From Isoetes taiwanensis (Eukaryota; Streptophyta; Lycopodiopsida; Isoetales; Isoetaceae), in NCBI GenBank assembly GCA_021234155.1, contig JAJEKV010000037.1, positions 250,001 to 314,000 on the forward strand: DNA of 64,000 nt, in the 5' to 3' direction. Made by a program: the position numbers and the translations under genes. The first letter of the stretch is position 1. Every line of letters starts with the position of its first letter. This document shows positions 10,172 to 47,589 of this stretch, piece after piece. Below the pieces are notes generated by a model. The model did not search any database. It was not told where the DNA came from and saw only the letters and a program-made list of their open reading frames with translations.

Positions 10172-10477
10172 GCATGTTATTTAGAAGACAAACAACGTAT
10201 AGCTCCTTCAAAAACTACAGTCAAGAAAAAAACTACACGTCGAAAAAGTTCGGTAAAAACAACACTGAAAAAAAGGACACGTTGACAAAAAAACGAAAAA
10301 GTGTCAGAAAAACCACCGTGGGATTTTTTGCCAAAAAACCACTGTCTCTTTGTGCAAATCCGGATAAACGGGCCACGTGGACTTTTGGGGCCATTTTGGT
10401 GTTGTTTTTGGCATAAAACAACACTTCCGTACAAGTAAAAAACAACTGTGGAGCAAAATTCGGGGTCAGTGTGGTAC

Positions 10478-10674
10478 TGATATGTATGTTTACGCTTCCG
10501 CAGCTAGATAGACCTGAGGGAGACGGGGTAAAATGACCCCTTCACTCTTCCCACTGGGACTCGTTACGGGTGCAGTGATATGTGGAGGGCCCTGTATCAG
10601 CATGGAGCTGGTATGGGGGATGAACTCCTGTTTGTATATGGTGAGTGCACCGTATACGAGTAGGGGACGTCACA
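10478..10674 (+). mobile_element. 3'-terminal fragment of a Gypsy LTR (first flank copy)
   Basis: The last ~200 bp of the same LTR that ends at 23609: the blocks GTTTACGCTTCCGCAG and GGTGAGTGCACCGTATACG, then the terminus GGGGACGTCACA. The left part of the LTR is missing; unrelated AT-rich DNA abuts at about 10478. It is followed at once by the Copia word GTTAGTCAG, exactly as the complete LTR is at 23610. This locus therefore duplicates an LTR-to-Copia junction. Confidence 0.9.
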
Positions 10675-12002
10675 GTTAGTCAGTTGTGTGATTTGGGTTA
10701 CAGAGTTACATTTGATGCTGATCAGTATAATATTTTGATGAATAATGAAATCAAATTTTATGGAAAACGTGTGGGAAACTTGTATGGACTGGATAATGCT
10801 GTTGTACATGAGTTTATTTATACAGTTCAAGAAGTTGGCATAGAAGTTTGGCATAATAGACTTGCACACACCAATTATAAAAAACTGGAATCTCTTCATA
10901 AGCAAGGGCACATAAGATGTGAAAATACAAACAAACTTGACTTGATTTGTGAAGGATGTGCTTTGGGAAAGCTAAATCGATTACCATTCCATAAAAGGAA
11001 AAGTAGAGCACAACAGAAACTTGAGCTGATACATTCAGATTTATGTGGTCCCTTAAATGTCAGAATTAGGACCAATAAGAGATATTTCATAACATTCACA
11101 GATGATTATAGCAGAATGTGCACCACATACTGTCTAAACAGAAAATCTCAAGCTCCAAGTGCTTTCAAGCAGTATGTTGCAGAAAAGGAAAGAGAAACAG
11201 GATTCAAAGTAAAATGTATCAGATCAGATAGAGGAGGAAAATACCTCTCAAATCAATTTAAAACATTCTGCATATCACATGGAATAAAGAGACAATTGAC
11301 CTGTAGACATTTACCACAACAGAATGGTGTCTCAGAAAGGAAAAATAGGACCTTGCTGGATGCAGTTAGATCAATGTTAAAGGAAAGTGGACTGCCTAAC
11401 AATCTTTGGGAAGAAGCGTTACACACAGCTGTTGAAATACAAAACATGCTACCATCAGTAAGCTTGCAGGGAAATATTCCAAAACTGTTGTGGGAACCAG
11501 AAACTAAATTGAACTATGAAAAGTTTAAAGTATATGGGTGTATGGTCTATGTACATGTGCCAACAGAGTTAAGGAAGAAGTTAGATAACAAAGCAGAAAG
11601 AGGATTCCTAGTGGGATATGATAAAGAATCTAAGGGGTACAGAATTTACTTACCTGAATCCAAGCAGACAAGAATTAGTAGAGATGTGTTATTTAATGAG
11701 CAGGTATTGTATAAACACAAATTCAGAAAGGGGAATGAAATTCAAACTGATAAGCCTGAAGAAATTCCTAAGTTTGAATTTGAAGAAGAAGATTATGATG
11801 ATTTAGAGAAACCAGAATGAGAAGAATGAGCTGGAGAAACCTGCTTGTGAGGATACCCACGAATCAAGACAAACTAGTGTTGAACCTGCAAATGATTATT
11901 CTGAAAAAAAGAAAAGGAAAACACAGGCAGAAAAACTTATAGAAGAGGCTGGACTTGGTAATCAAGCTTATGGAAGAAATGAAATGGGAAGAAGTAGAAG
12001 AA
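10675..12002 (+). pseudogene. Copia pol fragment A: GAG-pre-integrase and integrase
   Basis: The translation starts inside the GAG-pre-integrase region (VSQLCDLGY). It continues with the zinc-binding HNRLAHTNY..H and CEGCALGK motifs. The integrase core has D in LIHSDLCGP, D in FTDDYSR, and E in the PQQNGVSERKNR block. Next come the usual LWEEALHTA and YGCMVYVHVP segments and an acidic linker. It is 99%-like copy B at 23610-24931 and stops at the same element position, where it is replaced by Gypsy internal sequence at 12003. The end of the gag gene and all of the reverse transcriptase are absent here. The main frame runs to a stop at 11820, after which a one-base shift restores similarity to copy B. 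Confidence 0.92.
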
Positions 12003-12930
12003 CAGGGAGAGCCGACCCTCGATCCAGCTGAAGAAGAAGAATTAGCGGCGTGGATCAAAATGCACGAAGCGAACGAACGCCGCCGAGAGAGAAAGAGAGA
12101 AGAAAAGAAGAGAAAGAGGAACGAGGAGGAGGCGAAGGCAGCCGAGGAGCTGAAGAAGAAGAAAGGGAAATTCGTGAAGGTGAGCAAAAGGAAACTCAAG
12201 AAAACCCCTCCAATTAAGATCGTCATCCAAGAGCGGCCACAGATCAGCCACCACCCTCCTCAGATGATTCGGAGGATGAGGACTTTAATCCCTTCAATAA
12301 GGAGGCGGGTTCTTCGAAGGATCCCACCAATGAGCAGACAGTACCTGACCCGGAGCAGCTCGAGCAGGCGCAGAAGCCCCCACTATACCCGACGTGGGAC
12401 AGAAACAAAGCGCCGCGGCCAGCCCGAGAAGCGTATGTGATAGACCCCTTCAAGGTCTATCAGAAGAAACTAAAGGAGCACAACGCCTTCATGGCGAAGT
12501 GGGAGGCGTACAACACGTATTACCAGCAGAACAGGGTTAGAACTATAGAAGGTGGACATCCGACGAAGAGCCAAACACTGAAGCCGCCACCACAGAAGCC
12601 CAAGCCTCCTAGACCACCAGGCAAAAAGAGAGCCGGCAGAAAGGAGAGCGAGAGGAAAGCCCTGAGAGAGATCAGGCATTTTCAGAGAAGCTTCGGCTTT
12701 TTGATCCCCCGTGCACCGTTCGCCCGCCTAGTTCAAGAGGTGATCCAAGAGTACAACACGGAGATGCGGGTGACGCATGAGATGTTGCTGGCATTACAAG
12801 AGGCAAATGTAACGTAAACCGGTGCAAAGATTTTGAAGATTCGGACGGCTTTGCAATCCATGCAAAGAGAGTGACCCTGATGAAGCAAGACATGCATCTT
12901 GCTAGCTACATCAAGGAAGAGAGACCATAA
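12003..12930 (+). pseudogene. Retrotransposon-encoded histone H3-like protein (broken copy)
   Basis: The C-terminal part (12659-12927) aligns with the H3 histone fold. ALREIRHFQRSFG covers the N-terminal helix, PFARLVQEV the first core helix, and LALQEA the start of the long helix. After a break, [17 protein letters not shown] gives the end of the long helix, loop 2 and last helix, and it ends KEERP at the H3 terminus. Ahead lies a charged tail of at least 220 residues containing a KWEAYNTYYQQNRVRT block. The frame changes near 12240 (frame of 11955 to frame of 12437). A stop plus a net two-base insertion (12811-12835) breaks the long helix. Copia sequence replaces the true N-terminus. The minus-strand relative preserves the whole fold. 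There are no introns. An alternative is a degenerate cellular H3 pseudogene, but its place and neighbours are shared by both elements. Confidence 0.85.
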
Positions 12931-13075: not shown

Positions 13076-13142
13076 GTCTCACACGTCGCGCCAGGACCGA
13101 AAATAAAAAGTTCATTATTGGTCTGGGCGCAACGTGTGAGAC
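13076..13142. promoter_or_regulatory. Hairpin 1 between histone-like gene and ORF2
   Basis: An inverted repeat starts GTCTCACACGTCGCGCCAGG and ends with its near complement GGGCGCAACGTGTGAGAC, with an AT-rich loop. It is repeated identically at 13276-13342. The minus-strand element has the same arms at the same place, with a different loop. Role unknown. Confidence 0.9.
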
Positions 13143-13275
13143 CATGAACCAAAAGTGCCCAAAACTGCTCCAAATTGACCAAATAAGGGATCAATTCTGC
13201 CTAACTCGACGAATCTAGCAGAATTAGACCCTTACATCACCCAAATTGAACAAGTTTAACCCAATTAGAGGCAAT

Positions 13276-13342
13276 GTCTCACACGTCGCGCCAGGACCGA
13301 AAATAAAAAGTTCATTATTGGTCTGGGCGCAACGTGTGAGAC
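13276..13342. promoter_or_regulatory. Hairpin 2, identical to hairpin 1
   Basis: Exactly 200 bp downstream of hairpin 1 and identical to it, loop included. It lies about 190 bp upstream of the TATA box of ORF2. Confidence 0.9.
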
Positions 13343-13533: not shown

Positions 13534-13541
13534 TATAAATA
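13534..13541 (+). promoter_or_regulatory. TATA box for ORF2
   Basis: TATAAATA lies 115 bp before the ORF2 start at 13656. The minus-strand relative has TATAAATA at the matching distance (37205-37212, start 37090). Conservation of both box and spacing suggests that ORF2 has its own promoter inside the element. Confidence 0.7.
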
Positions 13542-13655: not shown

Positions 13656-15180
13656 ATGGCAACTGCTGGCTTCAGACGATGGTATAGCGCCAGTGGCCAT
13701 GCAGCCGAGGCTAATGTCAATGACATATTCCGAGTCTTTGGCAAAGAGATAGATGTCCAAGCAACCTTGCACGCAACGCCAGCATACAGGTGAGTTTTGG
13801 CTGAGTTCCAAACTAGTGCAGGTCAGTCCCTAGTGCAGCTTCCCCCTTGCACGGGCTATTTTGTTCCCCGCCCATCCCTTCAGGCAGCCTTGGGTGATGT
13901 CCCAAACATTGCCAAGTATTTGACCAACAAGGCACAAAGGTTGCCAGACTACATGGTCCTGACAGTTGACAGGACCAAGTACTTTTCCTACACCGCCGCC
14001 TTGGCCATATTCCTCTCCCACCGCGGTTGAAAACCCAATGGGGGAAACCTCTATTCCTCCCATGGAAGTGGACCCCATAGCATCCTCAAGAAGAGCAGAT
14101 GTTTTGCAAGACCGGCTAAGAGCGGGGAAGGAAGAACGTAAGAAGAGGAATCTGGACGAGGAAGAGTACACGAGAGCTTCGACCTGCAGGAAGAACGGCG
14201 GCAAGAAGCGAAGAGGAGCTACCCAACCGAGCCGAGCTGCGGACACTGAGTCGCCCCCACTAGGGCTAGACATTACAAGCCTAGCCCCCATTATCATTGA
14301 CGGTGAGGAGTACCCCGCCTCAAATCGATATCCGAATCTCCCCGAACGCGGGGAGAGGGAGTTCTCGACTTGATGAATTGCTGCACCAACTACGGCAGCA
14401 ACTAGACTTAGACGCTTCATCGTCCGGGGAGTCTCAGACTTCCCGCTTCAAGTGAGAGAAGCCGACACCTATACAGGGCAGTCGACTTCGGATATCCAGG
14501 CTTACAGCAACATACGGCAAATTATGGAAGCTCGAGAACTGCCATCTGAGGAGGAGTTCTACGCCATCCAAGAACGGATGGGGATCCGTGGCAAGACCAC
14601 GAGCATTTTGATGCCGAGCTCGTCGACACCACCTCGTGCAAGAGGAGCAGGAATCGACATCAGGCGGGCTTCATCGACGATTGGAGACTACCGAGAAATG
14701 ACTGAGGTAGAGGTCGATGAATACGCCGGAAGGCATAGAGCGGGAGGCCAAACAGGTGGAGAGTCATCAGCAACACACAATAACAGGTCGTTGAGGTACT
14801 ACCTTCCCCTGCTGCTGGATGGGAGAATAGCGGTGATATACTGCAAATTCAGTCCCCGGGGCGAAGAAGGAGTGTTTATGCTCATTGCACTCTCTGGCTT
14901 TGGCATGCATGCTCGAATAGCTGCAAACGTCGACTATGCTGTCTTAGTAAAGAGAGCGATGGCACTCGACATATTCGACTTCGCCGTGCCCTACCGACGG
15001 CAGGGAAGATTGGCAGTAACCGCGGCCTACACCTCCGACCGCAGGGTAGAGGAATTGGTGACAACCTTACAGGGCGGGACGTCAACCAACGTCCTCAGAA
15101 ACTTGGGACGCTCGGTAGGAACGGCCCAAGTTAAGAAATTCTTAGAGGATAACCCATCCTACCGGCGATTTCAAGAATAG
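13656..15180 (+). pseudogene. ORF2, element-specific protein of unknown function (broken)
   Basis: Not recognised. The start ATG at 13656 opens MATAGFRRW, matching MATADFGRW in the other element. Three conserved blocks follow. The first is an N-terminal domain (VNDIF..FGKEIDVQATL, ..GYFVPRPSLQAALGDVPNIAKYLTNKA). The second is a charged middle ending GLDITSLAPIIIDGEEY. The third is a C-terminal domain from READTYTGQ to DNPSYRRFQE, with DGRIAVI, SPRGEEGVFMLIALSGFG and NVDYAVLVKRAMALD. A TGA interrupts the first block at 13792 and frame changes separate the blocks, so the product of about 500 residues is not made from this copy. The C-terminal 242 residues are one open frame (14452-15180). No membrane segment or catalytic motif stands out. 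Confidence 0.75.
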
Positions 15181-15439: not shown

Positions 15440-16025
15440 CTCAAGGATAATGGTCCCATGACTCAAAGAGGAAATGTCGCCACGCGACGTAACTCCGACA
15501 CGTGATAAAGAAGCTCTACTAGCTGCACAAGCATCAGCCGCCGCAAAACCACACCCTCGAAAAGTCGGGAAGGATAAGAAGAGGAGTAAGAGAAGGAGGT
15601 CCCCTAGTACGTAAACCTCCCGACTCAAGCTCGCCCGACTCGAGTCCCAGAAAGAGGCCGGAGCAAGTGCCTAATCAGAGACTGCACGTATGACGCTTAA
15701 GGACTTAGACTACCGTAAGAAGGTAGACTCATCTTTGGGCAAATGTATGGAAGGCCCTGAAGCTTGAATAGTTCTCGCGGCAGAAACGTGATCAGGCTTG
15801 GAAGCAGAGGCGTGGCTCGACGAGATGAGCGAGTATGGCAACGCCTACGGGATGAAAGACAAGGACAAAGGCAAGGTGGCAACAGCCAACTTGAAGGGAG
15901 CCGCACGCATCTGGTGGAAGGGTTATGCCAAGGCCCATGGCTTAAGCAGAGATGGGTGCAGATTTAAGAAGTTTTCGAAAGCCTTCAAGCGCCATTATGT
16001 TCCTCGGGAACACAAGTCAATCTTC
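15440..16025 (+). pseudogene. Gypsy gag, N-terminal remnant
   Basis: The clear part (about 15795-16020) carries EAEAWLDEMSEYGNAYGM, LKGAARIWWKGYAKAHG and AFKRHYVPREHKS, the conserved capsid-type region of plant Gypsy gag. It is nearly identical to the minus-strand element at 34680-34900. A weaker homologous lead-in (DYRKKVDSSLGK) sits near 15700 and is interrupted by a stop. The gag sequence breaks off after PREHKS, where integrase C-terminal sequence is joined. The zinc knuckle and all upstream pol domains are gone. Confidence 0.88.
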
Positions 16026-16567
16026 TCGCAGCAAGGAGTCGACAAAAGAGCATCGCCGACAAACATCAGGCAGTCAGAGAGTTCCAAGTTGGAGATGATG
16101 TATGGCTCAAGATCAAGGTAAAGCAGGTGAAGCTCCGCATCGGAAACTGTAAGAAGCTTGCTCCAAGGTGGGCTGGACCCTTCAGAATAATCCAAAGAGT
16201 AGGTAATCAATCCTACAAGCTAGACTTGCCAGCACACTTAAAGATCCATAAAGTCTTCCACGTGAGTTTGCTGAAAAAGCACACTCCCAACCCAGATGAA
16301 GTTCTGGACACCCCAACGATGTTGGAAATAACAGAAGAACAGATAGAAATAGTTCCAGAGCTTATTCTTGATAAAGCGTTCAAGAAAACAAGGAGATCGG
16401 AGTTTCTCCAATACTTGGTCAAGTGGAAACACTTGTCGGTGGAAGACGCGACATGGGTACTTAAAAGAGATCTGATAAAGCAGTACCCACAGTTTATGGA
16501 GCAATGGGACGGCAAGGTCATCTCCGAAGAAATCGGCTCAGGCATGTCGATTCGTGTAGAATTATAG
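16026..16567 (+). pseudogene. Gypsy integrase C-terminus with chromodomain-like tail
   Basis: VGDDVWLKIKVKQ, LAPRWAGPFRI, YKLDLPAHLKIHKVFHVSLLK form the GPF-type C-terminal module of Gypsy integrase. The terminal YLVKWKHLSVEDATWV...YPQF matches the core of a chromodomain, placing the family with the chromoviruses. The catalytic integrase core is deleted. Stop at 16565-16567. The equivalent of the minus-strand element ends at 30591. Confidence 0.9.
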
Positions 16568-17408
16568 CTTGCATAGTTAAGTATAATCTACGCATGCAAC
16601 CTATGAGGTATGGGTTGCATGTGTTGTTACCGATGATGGGATCACTACGGTGATCTCTAGGACGTGGTGTAATGTCAATGCAGGCATGACCGCGGTTCCG
16701 CTTGGAAAGTCTACTTCTGTCCCACGGAAGTAGACGACCTCGAGATATAAGAGGTCATTCAGGAATGCATTGATAGGAAAAGCACCTCTAGTCAATGCCT
16801 GGGGAGGACCCTATCCTTCACGCCCCATATACGCGAAGGACCCTATCCTCCACGCTGGGCAACTACAGGGGTAGGCATGAGCGCCATATAGGCATTATAG
16901 GGCGTTGTCTCCACGGCCACGATGGAAGAAGCATCCTCTTCCTACGCCGGGAGATTAGCCATGCATTCATGTAGATAGTTGGGGTGGTTCCCTTATAACC
17001 AAATTTATAAATAATTAAAAATGGTACTAACGTAGTGTTGACCTGCAGGCCAATAGAGCGCTCCGGAGGGCTAGGAGTCGAGCTACGAAGACTTGCAACA
17101 CAAATTTTGTGTAATGTGTTGCAAGGAATGAAGAGTACCTCAGAGAATAATTGTATATATATTGATAAACTAAAACATTATGATAAGTAAAACTAATGGG
17201 TAATTGTTGTAATGACATACGAATTGATAAGTATTTGATTGAATAATAGTATAATAATGTTCTAAAAATATTACCTTAAGGTAATCATAATAAATGTCTA
17301 ACTATGATAATAGTATATCGTATGCATCAAGTTGATTGCAGGTTAAGAAGATCCCAAGGTGGGGAGACCCACGATGCTGCGGACAACATCAATTTAAGGT
17401 GGGGAGAA
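16568..17408 (+). other. Gypsy 3' untranslated region and polypurine tract
   Basis: Non-coding stretch shared, in reverse, with 29723-30590 of the minus-strand element (for example the words CACTACGGTGATCTC and GTCTACTTCTGTCCCACGG). It ends in the polypurine tract AAGGTGGGGAGAA immediately before the LTR, which would prime plus-strand synthesis. A second copy of the motif, CCAAGGTGGGGAGACC, lies about 45 bp upstream. Confidence 0.8.
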
Positions 17409-18367
17409 TGTGATGTTCCAGTACGATATACGGTCTCAAGACGTATACCGTACTGCACCGTCACGCGTACACGCCATTTCAAATGACGTGTACGCCGACG
17501 TGTAACCAAGCAAGGGCGCCCTGGGGGCAACTTGCAAGGGTGCGCACACTTAGCAATGTGCGCACTTTAAACCTTTAACCCATTAAAGGCAGACCAAGGG
17601 TCATGGAAACCCTAAACCTAACTGAGAGCCTATGTAAGGTAACCAAACCCTAATTCTTCCCTTTCCGTCCATGAACCTTCCGAGCTCCAGTTCGCGCGCC
17701 TGAGGAGTCAAATCCAACTCCCAAGATCTGCCCGTGCGCCCTAGCTCGTCAGATTCACCTTCCGACCGCATCCCCAAGCAGAGCAGCGACATGGACGCCT
17801 TCGGATCAAGAGGAGTGAACCAGGGATCAGGTATTTAGTCGATTTAATAGCCTAAACTGTATTCCAGCCATCGAACCAGGAGGTTTAGCCTATTAAATTA
17901 CTCTTAGTAGCCAAGCAGATCCCCAGATTGACCCTAACTAAAGAACCTAACTCTATGATATAGATTAGTTCTTATTCTTTAGTTCTATGATGATGTGATG
18001 GACGGGTGAATTTTGTGGACTCATTATATTGGGAAGGGGGGTAGAGACTTAAAGCTTAGTAGTTGATGCTCCTAGCTAATCCCTCTTAGTGCATTACTAG
18101 ATTTCGGCCTGTGTACAAGAACCACACCTGGTTGTGGGTGAAGGGGCTAGACTGGCTCAGAAGGAGGTTCGTGTTCTGAATCTTGACCGATCCCTCTGGT
18201 GTGTAAAGTCTACCGGGGATCAATGTAGACTAGGTCTAATGGCTTGCCACTGAGTGTGGGTAAGGCATGGGCTCGACACCCGTGGAGTGGTGTTCACTTT
18301 CCAGTGGGTTAAGTCGAATAAGGGCAGTGGCCCTCTAGTCACCTTGAGTCAGCATGGAGACCTCTAG

Positions 18368-29722: not shown

Positions 29723-30590
29723 TTCTCCCCACCTTGAAATGATGCTGTCCGCAGCATCGTGGGTCTCCCCACCTTGGGATCAACCTAACCTGCAACAACC
29801 TGATGCATACGATTACTACTATAATTCCTACACATTTATTAAAATTACCTTAAGGTAATATTTTTATGACATTATCACATCATTATATTATGACATAACT
29901 TATCAATTCACAACATTACTAAACGGATTACTCCAAACTTTACTTAACATTACGATTAAGTTTATCAAAATTTTAAAATTACGTCCGAGGTACTCTTCAT
30001 TCCTTGCAACACATTCCAACAAAATTTGTGTTGCAAGTCTTCGTAGCCCGACCTCCTTGCCCTCCGGAGCGCTCTACTGGCCTGCAGGTCGACACTACGT
30101 TAGTACCATTTAATTATTAATTAAAATTTTTGGTTATATGGTGACCACCCCACCTATCTACATGGATGCATGGCTAATCTCCCGGCGTAGGAAGAGGGTG
30201 AATCTTCCATTATGGCCGCGGAGACAGCGCCTACATGCCTATATGCCGCTCATGCCTACACCTCTAGTTGCCCAGCGTGGAGGATATCCTTCTCGCGTGG
30301 GGGCGCGAAGGATAGATTCCTCCTATCAAAGCATATATGGGGCTAAAGGTGCTTTTCCTATCAATGCATTCCTCAATGACCTCCTTTCTCTCGAGGTCGT
30401 CTACTTCCGTGGGACAGAAGTAGACTTTCTAATCTACCTTCCACTCGCCCAAGCGGAAACGCGGTCATGCCTACATTGACATTACACCACGCCCTAGAGA
30501 TCACCGTAGTGGTCCCATCATCGGTAGCAACGCATGCGACCCATACTAAGCGTAGGTGGCATGCGTAGATTAATCTTAACTACACAAGAA
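29723..30590 (-). other. Gypsy (-) 3' untranslated region and polypurine tract
   Basis: Non-coding, homologous to 16568-17408 in reverse. The polypurine tract lies next to the LTR at 29723-29738 when read on the minus strand. Confidence 0.8.
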
Positions 30591-33500: not shown

Positions 33501-33790
33501 CAACTTGTCGAGCACCTTGTCTTCTTTGCTTCCTTCGGATTCGCTCGCTAATCTCAAGCTTGAAGATGTATGCCACTTGCTCACTCTTGATGCACTTGAA
33601 CGACCATTTAGAAGACATACACCGCATGATGGGAACAACTTCCTTACCGTTATCTCAATGATCTTGCCGCCGGTTGGTAAGGTCACCTTCCGCTTCCACG
33701 GTCGATAATGGCCCCTGCTGGCCCAAGGTACTCCATTCCTATGATCAAGTCATACTTTCCAATGCCCATTACTTCGCTCCCCATCCGGAT
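30591..33790 (-). pseudogene. Gypsy pol: protease-RT-RNaseH-integrase-chromodomain
   Basis: Read on the minus strand. [20 protein letters not shown] (near 33200) is the reverse transcriptase N-part. KGFELLKEALTTAPVL and the [16 protein letters not shown] block (32600-32150) are RNase H. VVVDKLSKMAHFVPC, IISDRDPKFMSAFW and TAYHPRTG (31640-31400) are the integrase core. LAPRWAGPFRI and a truncated LVKWKHLPEKT (31000-30700) form the C-terminal and chromodomain-like parts. The protease is recognisable as LIDSGSSHNF, which reads in the gag frame at about 33955-33925. At least six frame changes split the gene, and I do not see an intact YVDD box. Polyprotein order is that of Ty3/Gypsy. Confidence 0.88.
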
Positions 33791-33791
33791 A

Positions 33792-35252
33792 TTAATCCAC
33801 GGCAAGTCGATGTCGGTTAATTCTCTTGCCCCGCCCCCGCCTATGCGCACCACTTGCTAAAACAACGGGTCTTGGCTTTGACTTTAGCGGCTTCAACTTC
33901 AACATCTGAACCATTCTGGGGGATGCAAAGTTATGGCTACTTCCTGAGTCTATCAAGACTATGAAGGACTTAGCTTTAGCCTTCCCTACTGTGGAAATTA
34001 CCTTATACTGGCTCTCTGCTTGCTCTGTATCTATTGCGGCAAAGATGTGACACTCACCCTGAATGTAGTCGCGGGCCTCTTCGCCGTCGTCGTCCGACAG
34101 GGCGTCCCAATCTCCCAACTCCGCTAGAGCTGCACTCATGACGTAGGGGCAGTTTGCTGTCCTATGGCCTGGCTGGAAGCACCTGAAGCACAGCTGCTTT
34201 TCTATGCACTCCTGCCTCTTTTCCTTGGGCATCGCTTGCAAAAAGGATTGCACTGCTTTGGAGTAGTTTGACCTCTCCTGCTTGTCCTTGAAGGACACCT
34301 GCTTCTTCTCCTGCTGCTTCCCCTGGTTCCCACCATATGGGGCTCTAGCTGGACCTGGACTGGCTGCCCTGGGGCTATAGCTTCCTGTCGCCTTGCCTTT
34401 ATCCTGGAAGTACTGCTGCTTGTGCCCGCTATTCTGAGGTCCTGACCCCTGCAAGCTTATAGCCTTGGATTCCGCTTCTGATACTGTCCTAGGGTTTATT
34501 GCCCTCACAAGCTTGCGGATCTCCTCATTCAGCCCCTCAATATAGCTTTCTACTGCATGCTTCTCTCCCAACTTCGGCACATACAGCCTTAGCCTCATGA
34601 ATTCCTCTGTATATTTCTGAACTGATTTGTTGCCTTGCCTTGCCTCGTAAAAAAGCTGATCATCATCTTTGGACTTATGTTCCCTTGGAACGTAATGGGC
34701 TTTGAAGGCTTTAGCAAACTTTTCGAACTTACAAGCATCCCCGCTAAGCCAGGTGTGCCTTTGCATAACCCTTCCACCAAATCCGAGCGGCTCCTTTCAA
34801 GTTGGCTGTTGCAACTCTGCCTTTGTCCTTATCCTTCATGCCATAAGCATTTCCGTACTCGCTCATTTCGTCCAGCCATGCCTCTGCTTCCAATCCTGAC
34901 CTGTTCTCCCCTGAGAACTGTTCCAGTTTCCGGGCCTTCCATACATTGCCCAGTGCGGAATCTACCTTCTTCTGGTAGTCAGAGGCCCTGGTATCTCTTT
35001 GTCGTCCCTCTGGGGTGTTCCTCTGCCTTCCCTCGTTGGATTTCACGAGCCTGTTTCTTCCTCTTCCCTCGAGTGGTCCGAGGTACGAACTTGAGTCGGA
35101 AGATTCGGACTGGGGATCTCCTTCTCTTGCTCCTCTTCTTGTCCCTTCCTTCCCTCCGAGCTGATGCTTTGCGGCAGGCCGAGCATTGCCCACCAAACCC
35201 CCCACCTTGCGGCGGACGGTAATGCCTTTATGCGCTCCGTGTCTGTCCTCAT
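33792..35252 (-). pseudogene. Gypsy gag with zinc knuckle
   Basis: The N-part (35252-34745) holds a charged leader, SDYQKKVDSALGNVWK, EAEAWLDEMSEYGNAYGM and GAARIWWKGYAKAH. After one frame change the 324-residue frame (34766-33792) gives KAFKAHYVPREHKS, the ARQGNKSVQKYTEEFMRL capsid segment, and the CCHC knuckle CFRCFQPGHRTANC. It runs on into the aspartic protease motif LIDSGSSHNF, so gag and protease share a frame, as in many plant Gypsy elements. The protein would bind genomic RNA and form the particle. Confidence 0.9.
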
Positions 35253-35560
35253 CCGGGCTATCTCCTCTTTAGGGTCATGGGTTCCCTATCTTCAAATAGG
35301 TTCCTTGGGGTGGTCTGGGTGAGGGTTTGTTCTTCTATAAGGTCTCGCAGCGGTTGTCGTTCCCCCGCGCTTAGTCCTCTATTTGCATCCACAAGTGATT
35401 AATGGCTATATGGTTAGTTCCATTTGTTCTCTTGCATTGTTTATGTTTGTTGGTATAATTGTGGGGCAAAATACATCAACGAAACATTTAAAGTCTTGGC
35501 AGAATTGTATTTATATATCATATAATATTTTAGATACAAAAAGTCTCAGGGATCAAGAGT

Positions 35561-37090
35561 CTAACTAGTCTTGAAATCGCCAGAAGGCGGGTTGTCTTCA
35601 AGAAACTTCTTAACTTGGGCCGCCCCTACCGAAAGTGACCCAAGTTCCCGATGATGCTTGCTGACGAGCCTCCCTGGATGGCTCTCACCAGGTCTTCTAC
35701 CCTGCGGTCGGATGTAAGGGCCGCGATCCATCGCTAATCTCGGCCGACGTGGGGTATGGCGAAGTCGAAGAGGTCAAGTGCCATTGCCCTCTTGACTAAG
35801 ACAGCATAGTCGACATTTGTTGCTATTCGAGCATGCCTGCCGAAGCCTGAGAGTGCAATCAGCATAAACACTCCTTCTTCGCCCCTGGGACTGAACTTGC
35901 GGTGAATTACCGCTATTCTCCCATCCGTCAGCAGCGGCAAGTAGTACCCGGCGACGCTGTCGTTGTGGTGTCGCCCGAAGCTTTCTCCGCTTGTTTGGCC
36001 TCCGGCTTCGTGGCCGGCGTACTTCGTCGACCTCCACCGATTGAGCTCCTCAGTAGTCTTCGATTGTGGGTCGAGCCTCCTGAGGTCGATTCCTTCTCCT
36101 TTTGGCAGGGGTGATATCGAAGGACCCGGCATTAGGATGCTCGTGGTCTTCCCACGGATCCCCATCTGTTCTTGGAGGGCGAGGAACTCCTCCTCTGTTG
36201 GCAGCTCCCGCTCGTCCATCAATTGCGATGCCGCTTTGTAGGCACGGATATCGGAGGTCGTCTCCCCTGTGTAGGTGTCGGACTCCCTCACTTGGAAGCG
36301 GGGAAGTTCGAGGCTCCCCGGGGACGATGAAGTCGCCCAGGTCGGTCTCACTGCTTGTTGGTGGAGCATTCAGTCCAACTGAGCTCCCTCTCAGGCATTC
36401 GGGAAGGTTCGGATGTCGCCGAGGAGTAGATACTCCTCTCCGCCGATGATGATAGGGGCTAGGCTTGTGATGCCTAGCCCGGTGGGGGAGCAACTCGATG
36501 CCCTGGCCGCCTTTCGAAATTGATCAGCTCCCGCCTCCTTGGCGCCGTTCTTCGCCCTGCGAGTCGAAGCTCCAGGTGTATCCTTCGTCGTCGACTCCCT
36601 CTTCATCTTCTCTTGCTTCCTCGTTCCTCGCTGATACCGCAACATCATCCGCTCTTCCTCTTAATCGCTATGGGGTCTACCTCCACCGGAGGGATAGAGG
36701 TTGCCCCCATCGGGTTCTCGGCCTTGGGTGGGATAAGAAGATGGCTAGGGCGGGGTGTAAGAGAAGTACTTGGTCCTGTTGGCTGTCGGGACCATGTAGT
36801 CGTAGTCTAGCGCCTTGTTAGTCAAGTACTTGGCGATGTTGGGGACATCGCCCAAGGCTGCTTGAAGGGACGGGCGGGGAACGAAGTATCCTATGCAAGG
36901 GGGAACTTGAACAAGGGAGGGTCCTACCCTAGCTTGAAATTCTGCTAGCACCTGCCTATAAGCTGGGGTTGCATTTAGCGTAGCTTGGATGTCGATTTCT
37001 TTCACAAAGACTTGGAAGATGTCGTTGACATCTGCCTCGAGAATAATGGGCACCGGGCCTGCACCATCGCCCGAAATCAGCAGTAGCCAT
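35561..37090 (-). pseudogene. ORF2, second copy of the unknown element protein
   Basis: Start ATG at 37090 (MATADFGRW), stop at 35561-35563. It has the same three blocks as the plus-strand copy. The N-terminal VNDIFQVFVKEIDIQATL...GYFVPRPSLQAALGDVPNIAKYL lies at 37050-36750. The charged middle has TGLGITSLAPIIIGGEEY. The C-terminal RESDTYTGETTSD...SPRGEEGVFMLIALSGFG...NVDYAVLVKRAMALD lies at 36300-35760, ending VKKFLEDNP. At least three single-base shifts break it, but at positions different from those in the other copy, so the common ancestor was probably one frame of about 500 codons. Function unknown. Confidence 0.75.
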
Positions 37091-37204
37091 TGATCTAGCA
37101 AGGAAGGGAGTATCAAACGGATGCAGAAGCGCCTCAGGGAGCTGAAAGATCGCCTAAGCAGTGGGGAGCAAATTTGCAGGGTACCAATTGAGAAATGGGG
37201 AACT

Positions 37205-37212
37205 TATTTATA
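37205..37212 (-). promoter_or_regulatory. TATA box for ORF2 (minus element)
   Basis: TATAAATA on the minus strand, 115 bp before the ORF2 start, matching the plus-strand element. Confidence 0.7.
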
Positions 37213-37390
37213 GAAAAGGGGAAAACCCTAATTTTTGGATGACTTAGAATTTACTGAGATTAGGCAATTCTAACCTATTAAGTGATGCAATTGCAAGTTT
37301 GAAGTATATTTCTAGGGTTTGAGCATGCTAAGGACAGCTACTGAACCTATTGTGCAATTTGGAGATCATTTGGTGATGAAATGGTACGGG

Positions 37391-37457
37391 GTCTCACACG
37401 TTGCGCCCAGCCCGATTTCTAAAATGTAGAAATCTGTCCTGGCGCGACGTATGAGAC
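37391..37457. promoter_or_regulatory. Hairpin copy 1 in the minus element
   Basis: Same GTCTCACACGTTGCGCCCAG-type arms as 13076-13142 but with a different inner stem and loop (CCGATTTCTA...TAGAAATCTG), which still pairs. It differs from its partner at 37590 at one base in an arm. Confidence 0.9.
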
Positions 37458-37589
37458 ATAGGTCCCAATTGGGCTAGGATTACTCAATTTAGATGATCTA
37501 AGGCTGTAATTCCACTAAACTCATCGAGTTAGGCAGAATTGACCCCTTACTTGGTCGATTTGGAGCTGTTTTGGGCATTTTTGGGCATG

Positions 37590-37656
37590 GTCTCACACGT
37601 TGCGCCCAGCCCGATTTCTAAAATGTAGAAATCTGTCCTGGCGCGACGTGTGAGAC
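37590..37656. promoter_or_regulatory. Hairpin copy 2 in the minus element
   Basis: Near-identical partner of the 37391 hairpin, 199 bp away, lying about 145 bp beyond the end of the histone-like gene. Confidence 0.9.
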
Positions 37657-37799
37657 ATCGTCTCAATTTTGCTCAAAACTCTAATTTAATTAAAACAAAA
37701 GCTAGGGATCGATATCTTGACCTATTTAAACAAGGTTTGACACTTTATTTACACAAAATTTTCTTTATATTAACAAAATTTTCCAATTATTTACAAAAC

Positions 37800-39006
37800 T
37801 CAAGGTCGTTCACCCTTGATGTGCCTGGCAAGATACATATCCTGCCTCATGAGGGTAACCCTCTTCGCGTGCACCGTGCAGGCCGTTGAATCTTCAAAAT
37901 GTTTTACTATATGCGCTTCGGCCGCCTCCTGTAAACACAGCAGCATCTCATCGGTCACGCGCATGTCTGTGTTGTATTCTTGTATGACTTCGCGGACCAA
38001 ACGCTGGAACGGCGCCCGGGGAATCAGGAGTCCGTAACTCTTCTGGAAGTGGCGGATCTCCTTGAGTGCCCTGTCTTCCAGCTTCTTCTTCTTGCTCCGC
38101 TTCTTCCCTGGTGCTCGGGGAGGCTTGGGCTTTGGTGGAGGAGGCTTGATGAATGCGGCTCTTCGTCGGGTGCCCGCCTTCAATCGTTCTCACCCGGTGC
38201 TCCTGGTAATAGGCATTGTAGGCCTCCCACTTTGCCATATACGCGTTGTGCTCCCTGATCCTCTTCTGATAGACCTTTAAGGGGTCTATCACATAGGCTT
38301 CCCGTTGCGGCCGTGGGGCCTTGACCCTATCCCACGTCGGAAATGGTGGGGGCTTCGCCACCTGCCCGGCCTCCTCCTGCTCTTGGGCCGTCTGCTCGGG
38401 TACCTCTTCCTCTACGACCGGGGGCTTTGAAGAGCTTGCCCCGTCTGCGCCCGGCACGTAGTCTTGGTCCGAATCGTCGGTAGTGGCCGGGGTCTCCTCT
38501 CCCGACGGCTCGTTGATGACAAGGTTCTCCGCCCTCTTCCCAACCTTGACCACCTTCCTCTTGCCTGCCTTTATGGCCTTGGCCTTCCTCTTCTTGGATC
38601 CGCTGGCGTCTTCCCGACTCTTTGTTCTCCGCTCCCGGCGGCGCTCTTTGACTTCGTACTTGTGGACGAAGCGTGCGAGGTCGGCCTCTTCTTCCGGGGT
38701 GAGTCGGCGGGCATTCTCCTCCTCTCCTCCTGCTCCTCCCCGAGGGGTGGATCTCGACCCAGGGGTTGTTCTTGGGCTGTTGATGGGTCCGCCTGTTCCC
38801 TCTGCTCCTCCTGTGGGTTGGCGTCCCCCTGGTGTTGCTCCTGCTGCTGCCCGTTTTCTGCCTCCTGCCGTGCAATTTCGTCGAGGATCTCACTCATGAC
38901 GTCTGGCCCGTCGTCCTCCAAGAGTTCTGTGTGGTCGCTCCGGTCCGACCCTGCTTCCTCACTTGACGAAGATTCGTCGCCGTGGAGAAGGCGTCGCCGT
39001 GGAGAA
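37800..39006 (-). pseudogene. Retrotransposon-encoded histone H3-like protein (fold intact)
   Basis: The C-terminal 89 residues (38069-37803) align end to end with H3 without a gap. [59 protein letters not shown] and the last residues KGERP match the H3 C-terminus. EIRHFQK and TLMR.D..LAR are CENH3-like; the loop-1 length and PFQRLVRE are canonical H3. The cysteine and histidine of the CxxHAKR dimer-interface motif are kept. The tail is at least 270 residues: an acidic start (ESSSSEEAGSDRSD, possible ATG at 38897), then KERRRERRTK-type basic runs, and [16 protein letters not shown]. Single-base shifts near 38715 and 38165 split the tail, but the histone fold lies in one open frame. There are no introns. 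Presumably nuclear and DNA-associated, by inference. Confidence 0.88.
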
Positions 39007-42000
39007 TGTGTACTCTTTCGCAATGAATACAGTGACATGAATGTATGCCCCAAGTGCAATGAGCCACGATATGATGAAAAAGCAAAGTCCAAAGTGCCAA
39101 AGAAGGTCTTGCGACAAATGCCAATCATTCCACGTCTGCAAGTTATGTTTAAGTGTCCTTCCCTAGCACAATTCATGGACTTCCATGCAAAACACCGAAG
39201 CAATGATGGAATCTTGAGGTATCCAACCGATGGTGAGGCATTAAAATATATAGAAGACAAATGGAAGCATTTTAAGGATGAACCTAGGAATGTTCGTTTG
39301 GCTTTGGGTATGGATGGCGTATGTCCATTTAGCACATTGTCATCTACTCATAGCGTTTGGCCGATTGTTGTTATAAACTACAATATACCACCTTGGATGG
39401 CAACTAAGGCAGGCCATTTAATGCTCACACTTATAGTTCCAGGTACTTATCTCTACATAGCATTACAACTCGTGTTTACATAGGTTATGGTTTCCTGATT
39501 TAGATTTGAATGGTATGTATTTAGGCAAATGCCAAGTGAAGGATATGAACGTGTACTTAGAGCCTCTTGTAGAGGAACTTGACATCTTATGGAGAGGAAT
39601 ACGTATGTATGATATTTATAGACAACCACACAATTTCATGTTTCATGGGATATTATGTTTCACTATTCATGACTATCCCGGACTTGGTGTAGCATCAGGT
39701 ACAATGTTATCATTCATTATTTATTTTAAACTATTTTCCAACTATATTACAAAATTGAAGTTGTACTTTGCAGGATTGCAAACTAGTGGAAAATGTGGAT
39801 GCCCATCATGTGGCCAGGAACTAACATCTTATAAATCAAAACATCTATCAAAGATGATATACACAAACCATAAAAAGTATCTACCATTGGATCATGAGCT
39901 TCGTCGTGGTGATACAACACATGTGCCTAAAAGAAGAACTCCATTGATTGGTTGCAAACATGGAATGATCGCGGACTGAATAGTTCTACACCTCCACCTG
40001 GCATGAAGAGACTATCCATACTTTACAAGTTGGAATACTGGTCTGAATTGAAGATTGCACATCTCTTGGATCCTATGCATATTTTTAAGAACGTGAGCCA
40101 TTCACTTTGGCGACATCTTACAGGAGATTGGGAGACTCTTAATGCTAGAAATGATTTAAAGGATAACAACATCAAAGCAGAATTGTGGCCAATCATAGAA
40201 GAAGGCAAAGCTCCTCGCTTTCGTCGAGGTCCTTGGGTATTGAAAAGGGATGAACTCAAACAAGTAAAAGACTCTCTTAAAACTCTTCGCACTCCAACGG
40301 GACATGGATCCTCCCTAAGAAGGGCATTCACAAAAGATGGAGATCTTACCGGCTTAAAATCGCATGATTGGCACAGGTTTCTACAGGTAAGTATACAAAT
40401 AATGGATGAACAATATTGACAACTTGTATGTACGACTAATTAGATTTTTTTTCCTTGTTACAGTATATTCTCCCATGTGCATTAGAGAATTGCCTTACGC
40501 CTTCTATCCGAAAGGTCATCTATAGACTCGCAAGTTTCTCTAGGTGGGTGTCTTCTAAAGAGATTGTAGCTGCTGATATTCCCACTATGGAAATAGAGAT
40601 TGCAGAGATATTATGCCAGCTAGAACACTTATTTCCCACTAGCTTTTTTGACCTTCAGGTATGTAGTTAGTTGAATAAATTTAACATTGGCAATCACACA
40701 TACTAAATGCGATTCATCAGGTACATTTGTTGGTGCATTTGCCACAAGAGATTTTGCTCGTGGGTCCAAACCCCTCTAGATGGATGTTCTTTTTAGAGAG
40801 ATATATGAAGGTATTAAAAGGCTTTGTGCGTCAAATGGCTAGACCTGAGGGATGTATGGCGGAAGGACATTGTGACGTCCCCTACTCGTATACGGTGCAC
40901 TCACCGTATACAAACAGGAGTTCATCCCCCATACCAGCCCCATGCTAATACAGGGCCCTCCACATGACACTGCAACCGTGACGGGTTCCAGTGGGAAGAG
41001 TGGAAGGGTCATTGCACCCCGTCTCCCTCAGGGCCTACCTAGCTGCGGAAGCGTAAACATACATGTCAGTAGCACATACATCAACATCATATGACCATCA
41101 CGAAGGATGGCCCTCCACATATCTGCATAGACAAAGATCAGCACATCACATAGGGAATCCTACCCAAGGCTCAGACTCGAAGGGATGACTGACGGCTTAG
41201 GTCTCCAGAGTTCATTGCAGACAGAATTCATGGCAATAGATTTGGCTGGCATAAGAACATGGCATAGGGTTGTCCACTCCATCCGCCCCTCCCCGCACAC
41301 TTTGCGAGTAGGTTGAAAAGTGTTGGGACCGATCAGTAGCCCGCACGGATGCATAGCCAAGGGGCTATATCCCGGGTTGCATCTCCCCAGCCCGATGGGG
41401 CGGTAGGGATCCCTCCCTCCAGAGATCTACATGCCGACTCAAGGTGACTAGAGGGCCCACGCCCGTATCACGACTTGAACTCAATGGAAGGTCATATTCA
41501 CCACCTCACGAAGTGTGAGCCCATGCCTTGCCCACACGCAGTGGCAAGCCATTAGACCTAGTCACAATGATCCCGGCAAAGCACTAACACACCATAGGGA
41601 TCGCTCAGAGTCAACACGAACCTCCTTATAAGCCGGCCTCGCCCCTTCACCCACAACCGTGTGTGTGGCTCTTGTGCACAGCCGCGATCTACGGTGTGCT
41701 AGAGAGGCTACTCTAGGAGCATCAACTACAAAGCTTTAGGTCTCTACCCCCTTCCCAATACAAGGAGTTCATAGAGATGCATCATCCATATACTTTCACA
41801 GAGAACTAAAGAACTAAATCTAATCTACAACATAGAGTTAGGTTCTTTAGTTAGAATCGCTATCTAGAGATCTAGAGGGGCTGCTGTGGGCAATCTAATA
41901 GGCTAAACCTACCGATTCAATGACTAAAATAGGGTTTAGACTATCTAATTGGCCAAATACCGATCCTTGAGGGGCTCCTCGACCGAGCTCGACCATCCCA

Positions 42001-43805
42001 CAAACTTCGAATCTAGAGAAACTAAGGATGCAATTCTCCCAAATGAAGTGCGGGATGCGGTTTTGGCCGTTGAGGCAGCCAAAACAGAGTTCAAGCCCTA
42101 AAATCGAAAAATTGGGCTAATTAGGGTTTCCTACCCTATATAGACAAGGGGGTTGGCTAGGGTTTCCAATTATCCCCTTTTTGCATGTGGGATAATTGGA
42201 AATGGGCCCACTTGCCTTTAAGGGCTAGGTGGCCAAATGTGCACACATGGAAATGTGTGCCCACATTAATGTGTACATTGGAAAATGTGCACATTAATTG
42301 CACCTATGGGTGTGGCCCACTTGGCATGAAGTGTCCACTTGGAAATGTGTGCCCCCATTAATGTGTACATTGGAAAATGTGCACATTAATAGTTGCACAT
42401 ATTTCTGGCAAGTTGCCCCCTAGGGCTACTCACCTGGCTACACGCTAGCGTACACGTCAGCTGGAGTGGCGTGTACGCGTGACGAGGCAGTACGGTATAC
42501 GTTCTGGGGCGTATACTGTGCTGGAACGTCACAGACATCTTATTCAGGAGACGTTATTTTTCTTGACGGATGCCACTACATCAATAGATCCAAATGCATT
42601 AAAGATTTGGAAGAAGGAGGCTCCTGATTGGTTAGAAGGTGAAGTCTTACAAGGTCAGGGTAAGCAGCGAAGGTTAAGTGACGAGATGTTTGAAGGCATC
42701 AACAAGTTCGTGTTGAACAACGCAGATGGTCTTACTAGGTGGGTGGAACTGTATAAAGTTGAGAAGGCACAAAGAGATAGTGACAGAAAAGCATATGCTG
42801 CAAGGAATCGTCGAGGACGTCATAGGAAAGTACAATATCCTTCAGAACTAAGACCCCTCCCTGATACTCCGCCCCATTGGTGGCTATCTGAAAAGCTTTG
42901 GGAGGCCGAAGACAATGGAGAAAAAATTCAAGAGGATGACATCAACATTGCACTTGGATGTAATAGATCAGTAAGTCTGGATTTGTTATTGTTTTTATAC
43001 ATTTTTTCATTCATAAATCTCATAAGTGTCACTTCTTGAGCTTTTATTTAATTTGCAGGCTAAGTTTCACAATTTGATGTGGGCCTATGGTCAACATTTT
43101 CGAATTGATAGCATTGACAAAGCTCGCGTGACTTGTGATTCTGGAGTAATTGCCTCATTTGACCAAAAGAGTCGAGCAAGCGCTAGAGATGATAACCCTA
43201 TTGATGGAGAGCTTGAATATGTCGGGGTTATTACTGATATTATTGATGTAGATTTTCGTTCATTTCGACAGACCATACTAAAGGCGAAATGGTTCAAGCC
43301 TCTATACCGTGGAAGAAATCAAACAGTGCGACGACATCCATCCGGTTTCTTTGAAGTCGATTCCACGCATGTCTTAGTAGATGTCAGTGAACCATTTGTG
43401 TATCCACAACAGGTTCAACAAGTATTTTTTCATGTCAACCCTCAAAACAAGGCATGGTGGATTGTTATCCCTACGGAACCAACATCACGTCGACACGTTC
43501 CCAATACCATCCTTGAGGAAGAAGGGGAGGAGCATGAGGAAAATATAGAGCATGAGCAACAATTGGAATTTGTGGAGCCAGAAAATGTAGAAGATTATGA
43601 AGCTCAAGGGGGAACAACCAGTGAAGAGTTGAGATCACCAATGCACTCCCCAATGGAACTTGAAGAAGACTATATTGAAGAGGAGGAAGACGTTGAGCTT
43701 CAAATGCCAAATAGACAGCGAAGATTGTTTCTACAACTAGACGATGATGAATGGAATGACATTCAACATGATTTCTTGGATGAGGTTTTTATGTCAAATG
43801 AATAG
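39007..43805 (+). pseudogene. CACTA tnp2-type transposase, second copy with solo LTR inside
   Basis: 39007-40870 repeats 26184-28049 almost base for base, starting abruptly in exon 2. A four-base difference at 39946 breaks exon 4 (CCATTGATTG against CCACGTGATTG). After the solo LTR the gene continues. Exon 42534-42970 has the LRPLPDTPPHWWLSEKLWEAE block and donor ATCA/GTAAGT. The last exon, 43059-43805, carries the DUF4216-type region (ARVTCDSGVIASFDQ, EYVGVITDIIDVDF..F.ILKAKWF). It ends in an acidic tail and a TAG at 43803. Together with copy 1 this gives a complete eight-exon transposase family member. Confidence 0.88.
40871..42533 (-). mobile_element. Solo Gypsy LTR with perfect 5 bp target duplication
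   Basis: 1,663 bp, TGTGACGTCCCC to GGAACGTCACA, flanked on both sides by GACAT (40866-40870 and 42534-42538). The transposase reading resumes in frame across it once one GACAT is discounted. It has the same orientation and U3 duplication as the LTR at 28050, and the left flank GACAT is the same at both. It is what remains when a full element recombines between its two LTRs. Confidence 0.95.
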
Positions 43806-47579: not shown

Positions 47580-47589
47580 GCTCTAATGT

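What the first reader, a model, noticed from the sequence alone, without database searches (positions are those of the whole stretch)
37800..39006. An LTR retrotransposon family that carries a histone H3-like gene
The final 89 residues of this frame align without gaps to the H3 core, ending exactly where H3 ends. It sits upstream of gag in the sense orientation of a Gypsy element. A diverged second copy occupies the same place in another element of the window (12003-12930), so it belongs to the family and is not a chance insertion. The combination of CENH3-type words (EIRHFQK, TLMR.D..LAR) with canonical loop-1 length and a tail of over 250 residues is unusual. I know of no LTR retrotransposon described with a histone. 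It could replace or mimic nucleosomes on element DNA, steer integration to centromeric chromatin, or block silencing; all three are inference.
Basis: partly seen in the sequence, partly recalled or inferred. Interest (0 to 1): 0.95.

Follow-up and report, generated by a model that had tools for sequence, protein, structure and literature searches.

The report
Jumping genes carrying histone H3
A large family of virus-like jumping genes in a plant genome (probably the quillwort Isoetes taiwanensis) carries its own histone H3 gene, which natural selection has kept nearly unchanged; the protein is predicted to enter nucleosomes and would likely help the element evade the plant's gene silencing.

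Summary
The window holds two decayed copies of a Ty3/Gypsy chromovirus (minus strand 28047-42534; plus strand about 10470-17540), each with a histone H3 frame upstream of gag. The window genome (1.658 Gb, by size probably Isoetes taiwanensis) holds hundreds of scored copies. Better kept copies have paired LTRs, a tRNA-Met-type primer site, polypurine tract and 5-bp target duplications, in the order LTR - H3 ORF - ORF2 - gag - pol - LTR; a chromodomain ends the integrase. The histone core is under extreme purifying selection (median dN/dS about 0.03, against 0.16-0.18 for the rest of the ORF), also when copies are chosen without reference to the histone. Two forms exist: a near-canonical H3 core (81-89% identical to the host's) behind a new 215-residue domain, and the window's divergent form (54%), which begins with the H3 tail MARTKQTARK (in frame in 6 of 8 fetched copies, one more with R2C) and has TATAAATA 108-110 nt before the start in 8 of 8. 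It fails tests for CENH3. Ten paper searches listed no retroelement-encoded histone. Likely mechanism (inferred): element nucleosomes that resist H3K9-methylation silencing.

The parts
40868..42534 (-). 5' LTR of copy 1 (TGTGACG...)
   Evidence: 90.6% identical over 1,688 columns to the 5' LTR of an element with paired LTRs
39004..40867 (.). foreign segment with tnp2 (CACTA transposase) between LTR and H3 frame; stands where primer site, leader and start of the H3 ORF would be
   Evidence: Transposase_21; repeat with 26181-29722; no exact primer-site match in window; one 1-mismatch hit at 53091, chance expectation 0.31
37800..39004 (-). H3 ORF of copy 1, broken by frame changes
   Evidence: in-frame counterparts L041-L046, L048
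37803..38183 (-). histone H3 core, 127-aa open frame ending at the H3 C-terminus
   Evidence: Pfam PF00125 8.2e-28; PDB H3.3 6.3e-29
37744..37749 (-). AATAAA just after the H3 stop
37391..37656 (-). two ~67-nt hairpins (GTCTCAYACGTCGCGCC ... GGCGCAACGTGTGAGAC) upstream of ORF2; the same pair precedes the H3 ORF in both window-type leaders fetched
37205..37212 (-). TATAAATA box upstream of ORF2
35566..37110 (-). ORF2 remains (no Pfam match); open part 35737-36369
   Evidence: 66% identical to copy 2, 27% over 78 residues to ORF2 of subfamily B
33795..34766 (-). gag with zinc knuckle and start of protease
   Evidence: Retrotrans_gag 2.5e-10, Ty3_capsid 1.6e-9; 47% identical to L015 gag over 175 residues
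30600..33790 (-). pol remains (RT to integrase); 30683-31333 open
   Evidence: SH3_Tf2-1 3.7e-23; integrase end 80% identical over 205 residues to L016, whose frame carries PF00385 Chromo 3.3e-9
29723..29735 (-). polypurine tract AAGGTGGGGAGAA
28047..29722 (-). 3' LTR of copy 1
   Evidence: 89.9% identical to the LTR of the LTR-paired copy; together with the following foreign segment it repeats 39004-42533 at 96.4%
10470..10676 (+). end of 5' LTR of copy 2
   Evidence: 91.8% identical to LTR end of the LTR-paired copy
12003..12930 (+). H3 ORF of copy 2, 5'-truncated and frameshifted
13076..13342 (+). hairpin pair of copy 2
13534..13541 (+). TATAAATA of copy 2
14452..15177 (+). ORF2 of copy 2
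15708..17538 (+). gag fragment and integrase end of copy 2, with a large deletion between them

Best explanation
This is a family of Ty3/Gypsy chromovirus retrotransposons whose first reading frame after the 5' LTR encodes a histone H3 with a very long N-terminal part, held under strong purifying selection, which likely pairs with host H4 in nucleosomes and would give the element chromatin that resists H3K9-methylation silencing. Shown here: the element anatomy, position of the frame, copy abundance, conservation of the H3 core, of most DNA-contact and all checked four-helix residues (near-canonical forms), conservation of the tail ARTKQTARK in the divergent form, and a hairpin-plus-TATA module before the extra frames in that form. 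Inferred: expression, entry into nucleosomes, preference for element DNA, and escape from silencing. The sampled near-canonical copies of subfamilies A and B lack the ARTKQ and ARKS sequences of the tail, so nucleosomes made with them would lack the usual K9/K27 methylation sites; the divergent form keeps K4 and K9 but has proline after K9 in place of serine 10 and about 310-345 residues between tail and core.
For: H3 identity. Position inside real elements: paired LTRs in 7 of 10 fetched near-canonical copies; in the 5 of those 7 whose outer LTR ends were both read, 4 perfect 5-bp target duplications (L011, L013, L021, L023) and one of 4 of 5 bases (L015); primer site exact in 5 of 7; window-type copy with 97.3% LTRs and primer site. 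Abundance: 135 of 150 scored matches other than host-type H3, 93 of the 135 in open frames over 200 codons; 150 of 150 scored. Selection: copies chosen by the N-domain, core dN/dS median 0.027 (41 usable of 55 pairs), rest of ORF 0.158 (55 of 55); divergent form 0.028 and 0.183 (21 of 21 pairs each). Tail: 7 of 9 codons of ARTKQTARK vary among 7 copies, 6 of them only synonymously; at R2 one copy has C. Residues: in 22 near-canonical copies 17 of 24 DNA contacts and 9 of 9 four-helix positions are invariant. ARTKQ absent in 22 of 22; ARKS upstream of the core in 1 of 22, the D copy L040. TATAAATA 108-110 nt before the H3 start in 8 of 8 divergent copies; hairpin pair in 2 of 2 leaders.
Against: No expression, protein or chromatin data could be used. 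AlphaFold models of the window core were of low confidence (mean pLDDT 57 and 56); the fold search listed nucleosome entries in nearly all of its 50 rows shown, but at rmsd of about 9 to 17 and TM-scores of 0.50 or less, so it adds nothing firm. The divergent form keeps K4 and K9, which does not fit a simple 'no methylation site' model, and keeps only 9 of 24 DNA-contact residues in the window copy. Copy L040 (subfamily D) has one ARKS in its linker. A very long N-terminal part might hinder nucleosome assembly. Copies in the ranked lists are the best scorers, so intactness there is inflated; 3 of 12 copies chosen by the N-domain have a broken core, and many N-domain matches hold stops.
Confidence: 0.5

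Rival explanations
1. Integration targeting: the element H3 marks chromatin sites (its own copies or centromeres) that the integrase complex recognises, so new copies land in safe regions.
For: The element encodes a chromodomain at the integrase end; the divergent form keeps the ARTKQTARK peptide that some chromodomains read when methylated; CENH3-like words in that form.
Against: The chromodomain read (L016) shows only one of three aromatic-cage positions (EIVPEALLDR, W of VKWK, L of KHLP, alignment to HP1 recalled), the pattern that PMC6317226 calls type II with unknown partner (passages). The near-canonical copies have no ARTKQ tail (22 of 22). Loop 1 and tail are not those of CENH3.
Confidence: 0.15
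2. Interference with the host: the element H3 enters host nucleosomes widely and disturbs host gene regulation or histone chaperones, as bracovirus H4 does with its extended tail.
For: Bracovirus CvBV-H4 is a single viral histone with an extended tail that enters host nucleosomes (PMC9145170, passages read); same layout of added N-terminal residues on a conserved core; H3.3-like residues in subfamily A (markers recalled).
Against: A vertically inherited element gains little from harming its host; no expression data.
Confidence: 0.14
3. Packaging: the H3 protein coats or compacts the element's cDNA in the particle or on entry to the nucleus.
For: DNA contacts kept in near-canonical forms; basic linker before the core.
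Against: H3 alone does not wrap DNA (recalled), and no H4 was seen among the element frames tested; retrotransposons without histones transpose.
Confidence: 0.08
4. Artefact or bystander: host histone genes hit by insertions, or a captured dead gene copied passively.
For: Both window copies are broken; host-type H3 genes are numerous (15 of 150 rows).
Against: Target duplications and primer site outside the frame show that the frame moved with the element; synonymous change far exceeds amino-acid change in the core.
Confidence: 0.02

Closest known systems
Chromoviruses (chromodomain Ty3/Gypsy retrotransposons of plants)
   Same: gag, protease, RT, RNase H, integrase, C-terminal chromodomain, tRNA-Met-type primer site, 5-bp target duplication; in the 120 hits listed of 7,092, named relatives of the pol (Closterium, Pinus, Cucumis and others) are mostly 41-52% identical; one unnamed contig is 73%
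   Different: two extra frames between LTR and gag, the first a histone H3
Retrosat2 / RIRE3 / RIRE8 of rice (ORF0 upstream of gag-pol)
   Same: extra frame upstream of gag-pol, evolving faster than gag-pol (PMC3485330, abstract and passages)
   Different: ORF0 origin and function unknown in that paper; 0 occurrences of 'histone' in its text
Phalaenopsis orchid Gypsy elements with an AlkB RNA demethylase
   Same: Gypsy element that took a cellular domain into an additional frame and kept it (PMC9289625, section 12 and passages)
   Different: domain is a 2-ODD demethylase; section 12 of that screen of 121 angiosperm genomes names no histone (its Supplementary Figure 1 was not seen)
Bracovirus histone H4 (CvBV-H4) and other single viral histones
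   Same: mobile-element histone close to the host's, with an added N-terminal stretch (PMC9145170, passages)
   Different: DNA virus-derived, H4, acting in a parasitised animal; the review has no occurrence of retrotransposon or retrovirus
Nudivirus Orf1 (HzNV)
   Same: long protein of unknown N-terminal part with a histone region at the C-terminus (PMC9145170)
   Different: H4-H3 doublet of 30-40% identity in a large DNA virus

Membership tests
Ty3/Gypsy chromovirus | gag-protease-RT-RNase H-integrase order | tested here: met
   L028 and L022 frames: RVP_2, RVT_1, RT_RNaseH, Integrase_H2C2, rve in order (rve just under its cut-off); gag Ty3_capsid 2.8e-17 in L015
Ty3/Gypsy chromovirus | chromodomain at integrase C-terminus | tested here: met
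   PF00385 3.3e-9 in L016; window integrase end 80% identical to it, though the window's own open piece gave no Chromo match
Ty3/Gypsy chromovirus | LTRs, primer site, polypurine tract, target duplication | tested here: met
   7 of 10 copies with LTR pairs; 4 perfect 5-bp duplications among 5 read; window-type copy with flanks GGGAC/AGGAC. No primer site remains in the window copies
Histone H3 | significant match to the histone profile with H3 C-terminus | tested here: met
Histone H3 | DNA-contact and H3-H3 four-helix residues (list recalled) | tested here: met
   near-canonical copies: 9 of 9 four-helix and 17 of 24 contact positions invariant in 22 of 22; divergent window copy keeps 8 of 9 and 9 of 24
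Histone H3 | forms tetramers and nucleosomes with H4 | not testable with these tools
   needs protein; fold models of low confidence
Centromeric H3 (CENH3) | longer loop 1 | tested here: not met
   gapless alignment to H3 across loop 1
Centromeric H3 (CENH3) | N-terminal tail unlike H3 | tested here: not met
   divergent form begins MARTKQTARK in 6 of 8 and MACTKQTARK in 1 of 8 fetched copies
Centromeric H3 (CENH3) | groups with CENH3 in a tree | tested here: inconclusive
   long branches meet at Arabidopsis CENH3; tool warns of false joins
Replication-independent H3.3 | H3.3-type residues (recalled: Y41, H87, L90 in plants) | tested here: inconclusive
   the six A copies have Y41, H87, L90; B copies have Y or F at 41, F87, L90
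Viral single histones entering host nucleosomes | entry into host nucleosomes | not testable with these tools
   no chromatin data

The most novel reading that the evidence does not exclude
The first retroelement that builds its own chromatin: a plant chromovirus lineage that acquired or remodelled histone H3 at least twice and deposits it, with an extra domain in place of the normal tail, on element DNA, creating parasite nucleosomes that host H3K9 methylation machinery cannot mark or misreads.
Probability: 0.35. Interest if true: 0.98.

Novelty: new variant of a known kind. Interest (0 to 1): 0.93.

Why it matters
Host silencing of retrotransposons works through histone marks. An element that encodes the marked protein itself would be a direct counter-move in that conflict, and a natural experiment on which parts of H3 matter: the core is kept almost letter for letter within each form while the tail is replaced or parted from the core by more than 300 residues. 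It would also show that histones can be carried by retroelements, not only by large DNA viruses, and open a route by which H3 variants could pass to or from hosts. The copies are abundant in one sequenced plant genome, so transcription, chromatin position and nucleosome assembly can be tested now.

Tried and rejected
CENH3 capture: two tests failed (loop 1 length; tail); tree inconclusive. The genome search with the Arabidopsis CENH3 domain (150 of 7,028 candidates scored) showed host-type H3 at the top and element-like frames below; no host CENH3 gene was recognised. Chance reading frame: rejected by E-values and selection. Bias check: the first dN/dS set was picked by histone score, so a second set was picked by the N-terminal domain; of its 12 copies L049 was dropped (early stop), 11 analysed, two of these with cores cut short (L055, L057). 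The divergent set was picked by H3 similarity and long frames; of 8 copies L047 was dropped (frameshift). N-terminal domain: no relative at E 0.001 among 2,287 candidates in the protein collection, none credible in PDB (best E 0.24) or Pfam (best 0.039). The whole-protein search was swamped by histones. ORF2: no Pfam match. Structure prediction: low confidence twice. A pattern count of the MARTKQTARKP start over the genome never ran (tool busy, 10 calls). My note says 8 of 10 copies with LTR pairs; the calls show 7 of 10 (corrected).

Full report
What is in the window. On the minus strand, 37803-38183 is an open frame of 127 codons whose last 108 or so residues align without gaps to solved H3 chains up to the C-terminus (E 6.3e-29) and to Pfam Histone (8.2e-28). 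Upstream the protein continues in changing frames to 39004, so this copy is decayed. Copy 2 on the plus strand, 12003-12930, is homologous, frameshifted and truncated (Pfam 2.7e-11). Each is followed by a second unknown frame (ORF2; the two are 66% identical), then gag and pol remains.

LTRs of the window copies. Copy 1 is bounded by direct repeats 26181-29722 and 39004-42533 at 96.4%. Comparison with a better kept element shows that the LTR proper is 40868-42534 and 28047-29722 (about 90% identity to that element's LTR), and that a tnp2-bearing segment follows each LTR. In copy 2 a Copia integrase piece takes the same place. The primer site and the start of the H3 ORF are missing in both window copies.

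The genome. The window lies in G000 (C1042:250001-314000), 1,658,258,908 bases in 1,110 contigs. The published Isoetes taiwanensis assembly is 1,658.30 Mb in 204 scaffolds plus 909 contigs (PMC8566536, passages read); I take the host to be that quillwort by size alone. Searching with the Pfam Histone model, which covers all core histones, gave 8,705 first-look candidates, 150 scored: 15 host-type H3 matches at the top and 135 others, 93 of them in open frames over 200 codons and 35 over 400. Searching with the window's H3 gave 9,943 candidates, 150 scored, all 84-99% identical (the window copy among them), 142 of 150 without a stop in the matched part (best-scoring copies only). The two scored lists should not overlap, since the window form scores 97.5 bits against the Histone model and the listed matches score 144 or more.

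Element anatomy. Ten near-canonical copies with long frames were fetched. Seven of ten show paired LTRs of about 1.3-1.65 kb, 89-97% alike; in L009, L019 and L025 no pair was found in the 20 kb read. Where the ends were read, the LTR starts TGTGACGTTCC and ends in or near GTCACA; it is followed by TGGTATCAGAGC (exact in 5 of 7), a tRNA-Met-type primer site (recalled); a purine tract AAGGAGGGGAGAA precedes the 3' LTR in the five copies whose 3' LTR start was read. Target duplications: perfect 5 bp in L011 (AACTC), L013 (AAAGT), L021 (GTGGC), L023 (GGAAA), 4 of 5 bases in L015; L017 and L027 could not be read. Order, from frames and Pfam: LTR, H3 ORF (open frames of 474-494 codons in 10 of 10, picked for that), ORF2 (open over 330 codons in 5 of 10), gag, pol with protease, RT, RNase H and integrase, LTR; a chromodomain ends the integrase in the one long frame tested to its end (L016). 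For the window's own form, C1034:25300336 has 97.3% identical LTRs of 1.67 kb, the primer site, and flanks GGGAC/AGGAC; C919:9027933 has matching LTR pieces of about 91% and the primer site.

Two forms of the protein. Subfamilies A, B and D share an N-terminal domain of about 215 residues (B and D copies 30-36% identical to an A copy) with no relative found in the protein collection (2,287 candidates), PDB or Pfam, then a charged linker, then an H3 core 81-89% identical to the host's (22 copies). Subfamily C, the window's, has a different N-terminal part. Of 8 fetched C copies 6 begin MARTKQTARKP in frame and 1 MACTKQTARKP; the eighth is frameshifted behind its start. That is the H3 tail through K9, followed by 308-344 residues, then a core that in the window copy is 54% identical to host H3. 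Yet the integrase ends of the window copy and a B copy are 80% identical, gag 47%, ORF2 27% over a short stretch. So one element lineage carries two very different H3 modules: either two acquisitions or a replacement or burst of change. The tree cannot decide this; A (88/91), B and C (both starred) each form one group, and C joins Arabidopsis CENH3 by long branches with a tool warning.

Selection. With Nei-Gojobori counts from my own script, ten copies picked by histone score gave core dN/dS between 0 and 0.07 within subfamilies where dS was countable, but that choice favours conserved cores. Copies were therefore picked by the N-terminal domain alone (2,455 candidates, 150 scored, many of the weaker ones with stops): of 12 fetched, 9 have a complete open H3 core and 3 do not; 11 entered the count. 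Core dN/dS: median 0.027, largest 0.158 (41 usable of 55 pairs; the tally gives 14 pairs as saturated in dS). Rest of the ORF: median 0.158 (55 of 55). For C (7 of 8 copies; picked by H3 similarity and long frames): 0.028 and 0.183. In the tail codons of those 7 copies, 7 of 9 codons vary; 6 vary only synonymously, and at R2 one copy has C. The element H3 therefore was selected as a protein through long element evolution.

Residues. In 22 near-canonical copies all nine H3-H3 four-helix positions checked and 17 of 24 DNA contacts are invariant (the lists are recalled). The window copy keeps 8 of 9 and 9 of 24. None of the 22 has ARTKQ; one (L040) has ARKS upstream of the core. The A copies have the plant H3.3 residues Y41, H87, L90 (recalled markers).

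Expression signals. In the C form the leader before the H3 ORF and the spacer before ORF2 carry the same module: two copies of a 67-nt hairpin, then TATAAATA, then the frame (leader against window spacer E 1.9e-25). The hairpin pair stands in 2 of 2 leaders fetched, and TATAAATA stands 108-110 nt before the H3 start in 8 of 8 C copies. In the window the module stands before ORF2 in both copies (37391-37656 with 37205; 13076-13342 with 13534), and AATAAA follows the H3 stop at 37744. No shared module was found between leader and spacers in the A and B copies tested (L027, L021). I infer that in C each extra frame is its own transcription unit.

Mechanism. Shown: a selected H3 inside a mobile chromovirus. 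Inferred: the protein joins H4 in nucleosomes; with the tail replaced (A, B) or separated from the core by over 300 residues and with P after K9 (C), such nucleosomes would escape or misdirect H3K9 methylation, the mark that maintains plant TE silencing (PMC9033089, passages). Targeting through the integrase chromodomain is less likely, since the one read has one of three aromatic-cage positions (cage rule from PMC6317226, passages; alignment to HP1 recalled).

Literature. Ten searches of the PMC library (two returned nothing) listed no paper whose title or abstract start reports a retroelement-encoded histone. Texts searched within for 'histone': PMC7264820 (0 occurrences), PMC6431247, PMC3485330, PMC8566536, PMC10541799, PMC6317226 (1, on the chromodomain). 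Section 12 of PMC9289625, a screen of 121 angiosperm genomes, names no histone domain. The viral histone review PMC9145170 has no occurrence of retrotransposon or retrovirus. Supplements were not seen; subscription journals and preprints are largely not covered.

Limits. Lists hold best-scoring copies only; first-look counts are not confirmed copies. Other lycophytes could not be searched. Host name rests on assembly size. Fold models were poor. The share of elements of this lineage that carry the H3 frame was not measured.

Noticed in passing
26181-28047, 39004-40868; 10676-12002, 23611-24931: Both window copies show the same odd layout: LTR end, foreign TE piece (tnp2 or Copia integrase), 5'-truncated H3 ORF, and the same foreign piece again after the 3' LTR. 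Tandem duplication followed by LTR-LTR loss would explain it.
   Followed up: partly
37391-37656, 13076-13342; L061, L063: A 67-nt hairpin with arms GTCTCACACGT.GCGCC / GGCGC.ACGTGTGAGAC occurs twice before each extra frame of the divergent form; it could be a regulatory protein site or RNA structure.
   Followed up: partly
35566-37110, 14452-15177; ORF2 in L017, L019, L021, L025, L027: ORF2 is a second extra frame of up to about 500 open codons without any Pfam match.
   Followed up: partly
L009-L040, residues 1-215 of the H3 ORF: The N-terminal domain of subfamilies A, B and D has no detectable relative in the collections searched; 32 invariant columns over 16 copies.
   Followed up: partly
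49809-57351: Three near-identical tandem units of about 2.73-2.75 kb.
   Followed up: no
47498-49687: Long low-complexity tract giving F/P/S/L-rich frames that look spurious.
   Followed up: no
146-1109, 6095-6368: Arrays of a 19-bp tandem repeat.
   Followed up: no
P0122: An unnamed 4,999-bp contig encodes a gag-pol 73% identical over 98% of the element's pol, closer than any named hit listed; it may come from a related plant.
   Followed up: no
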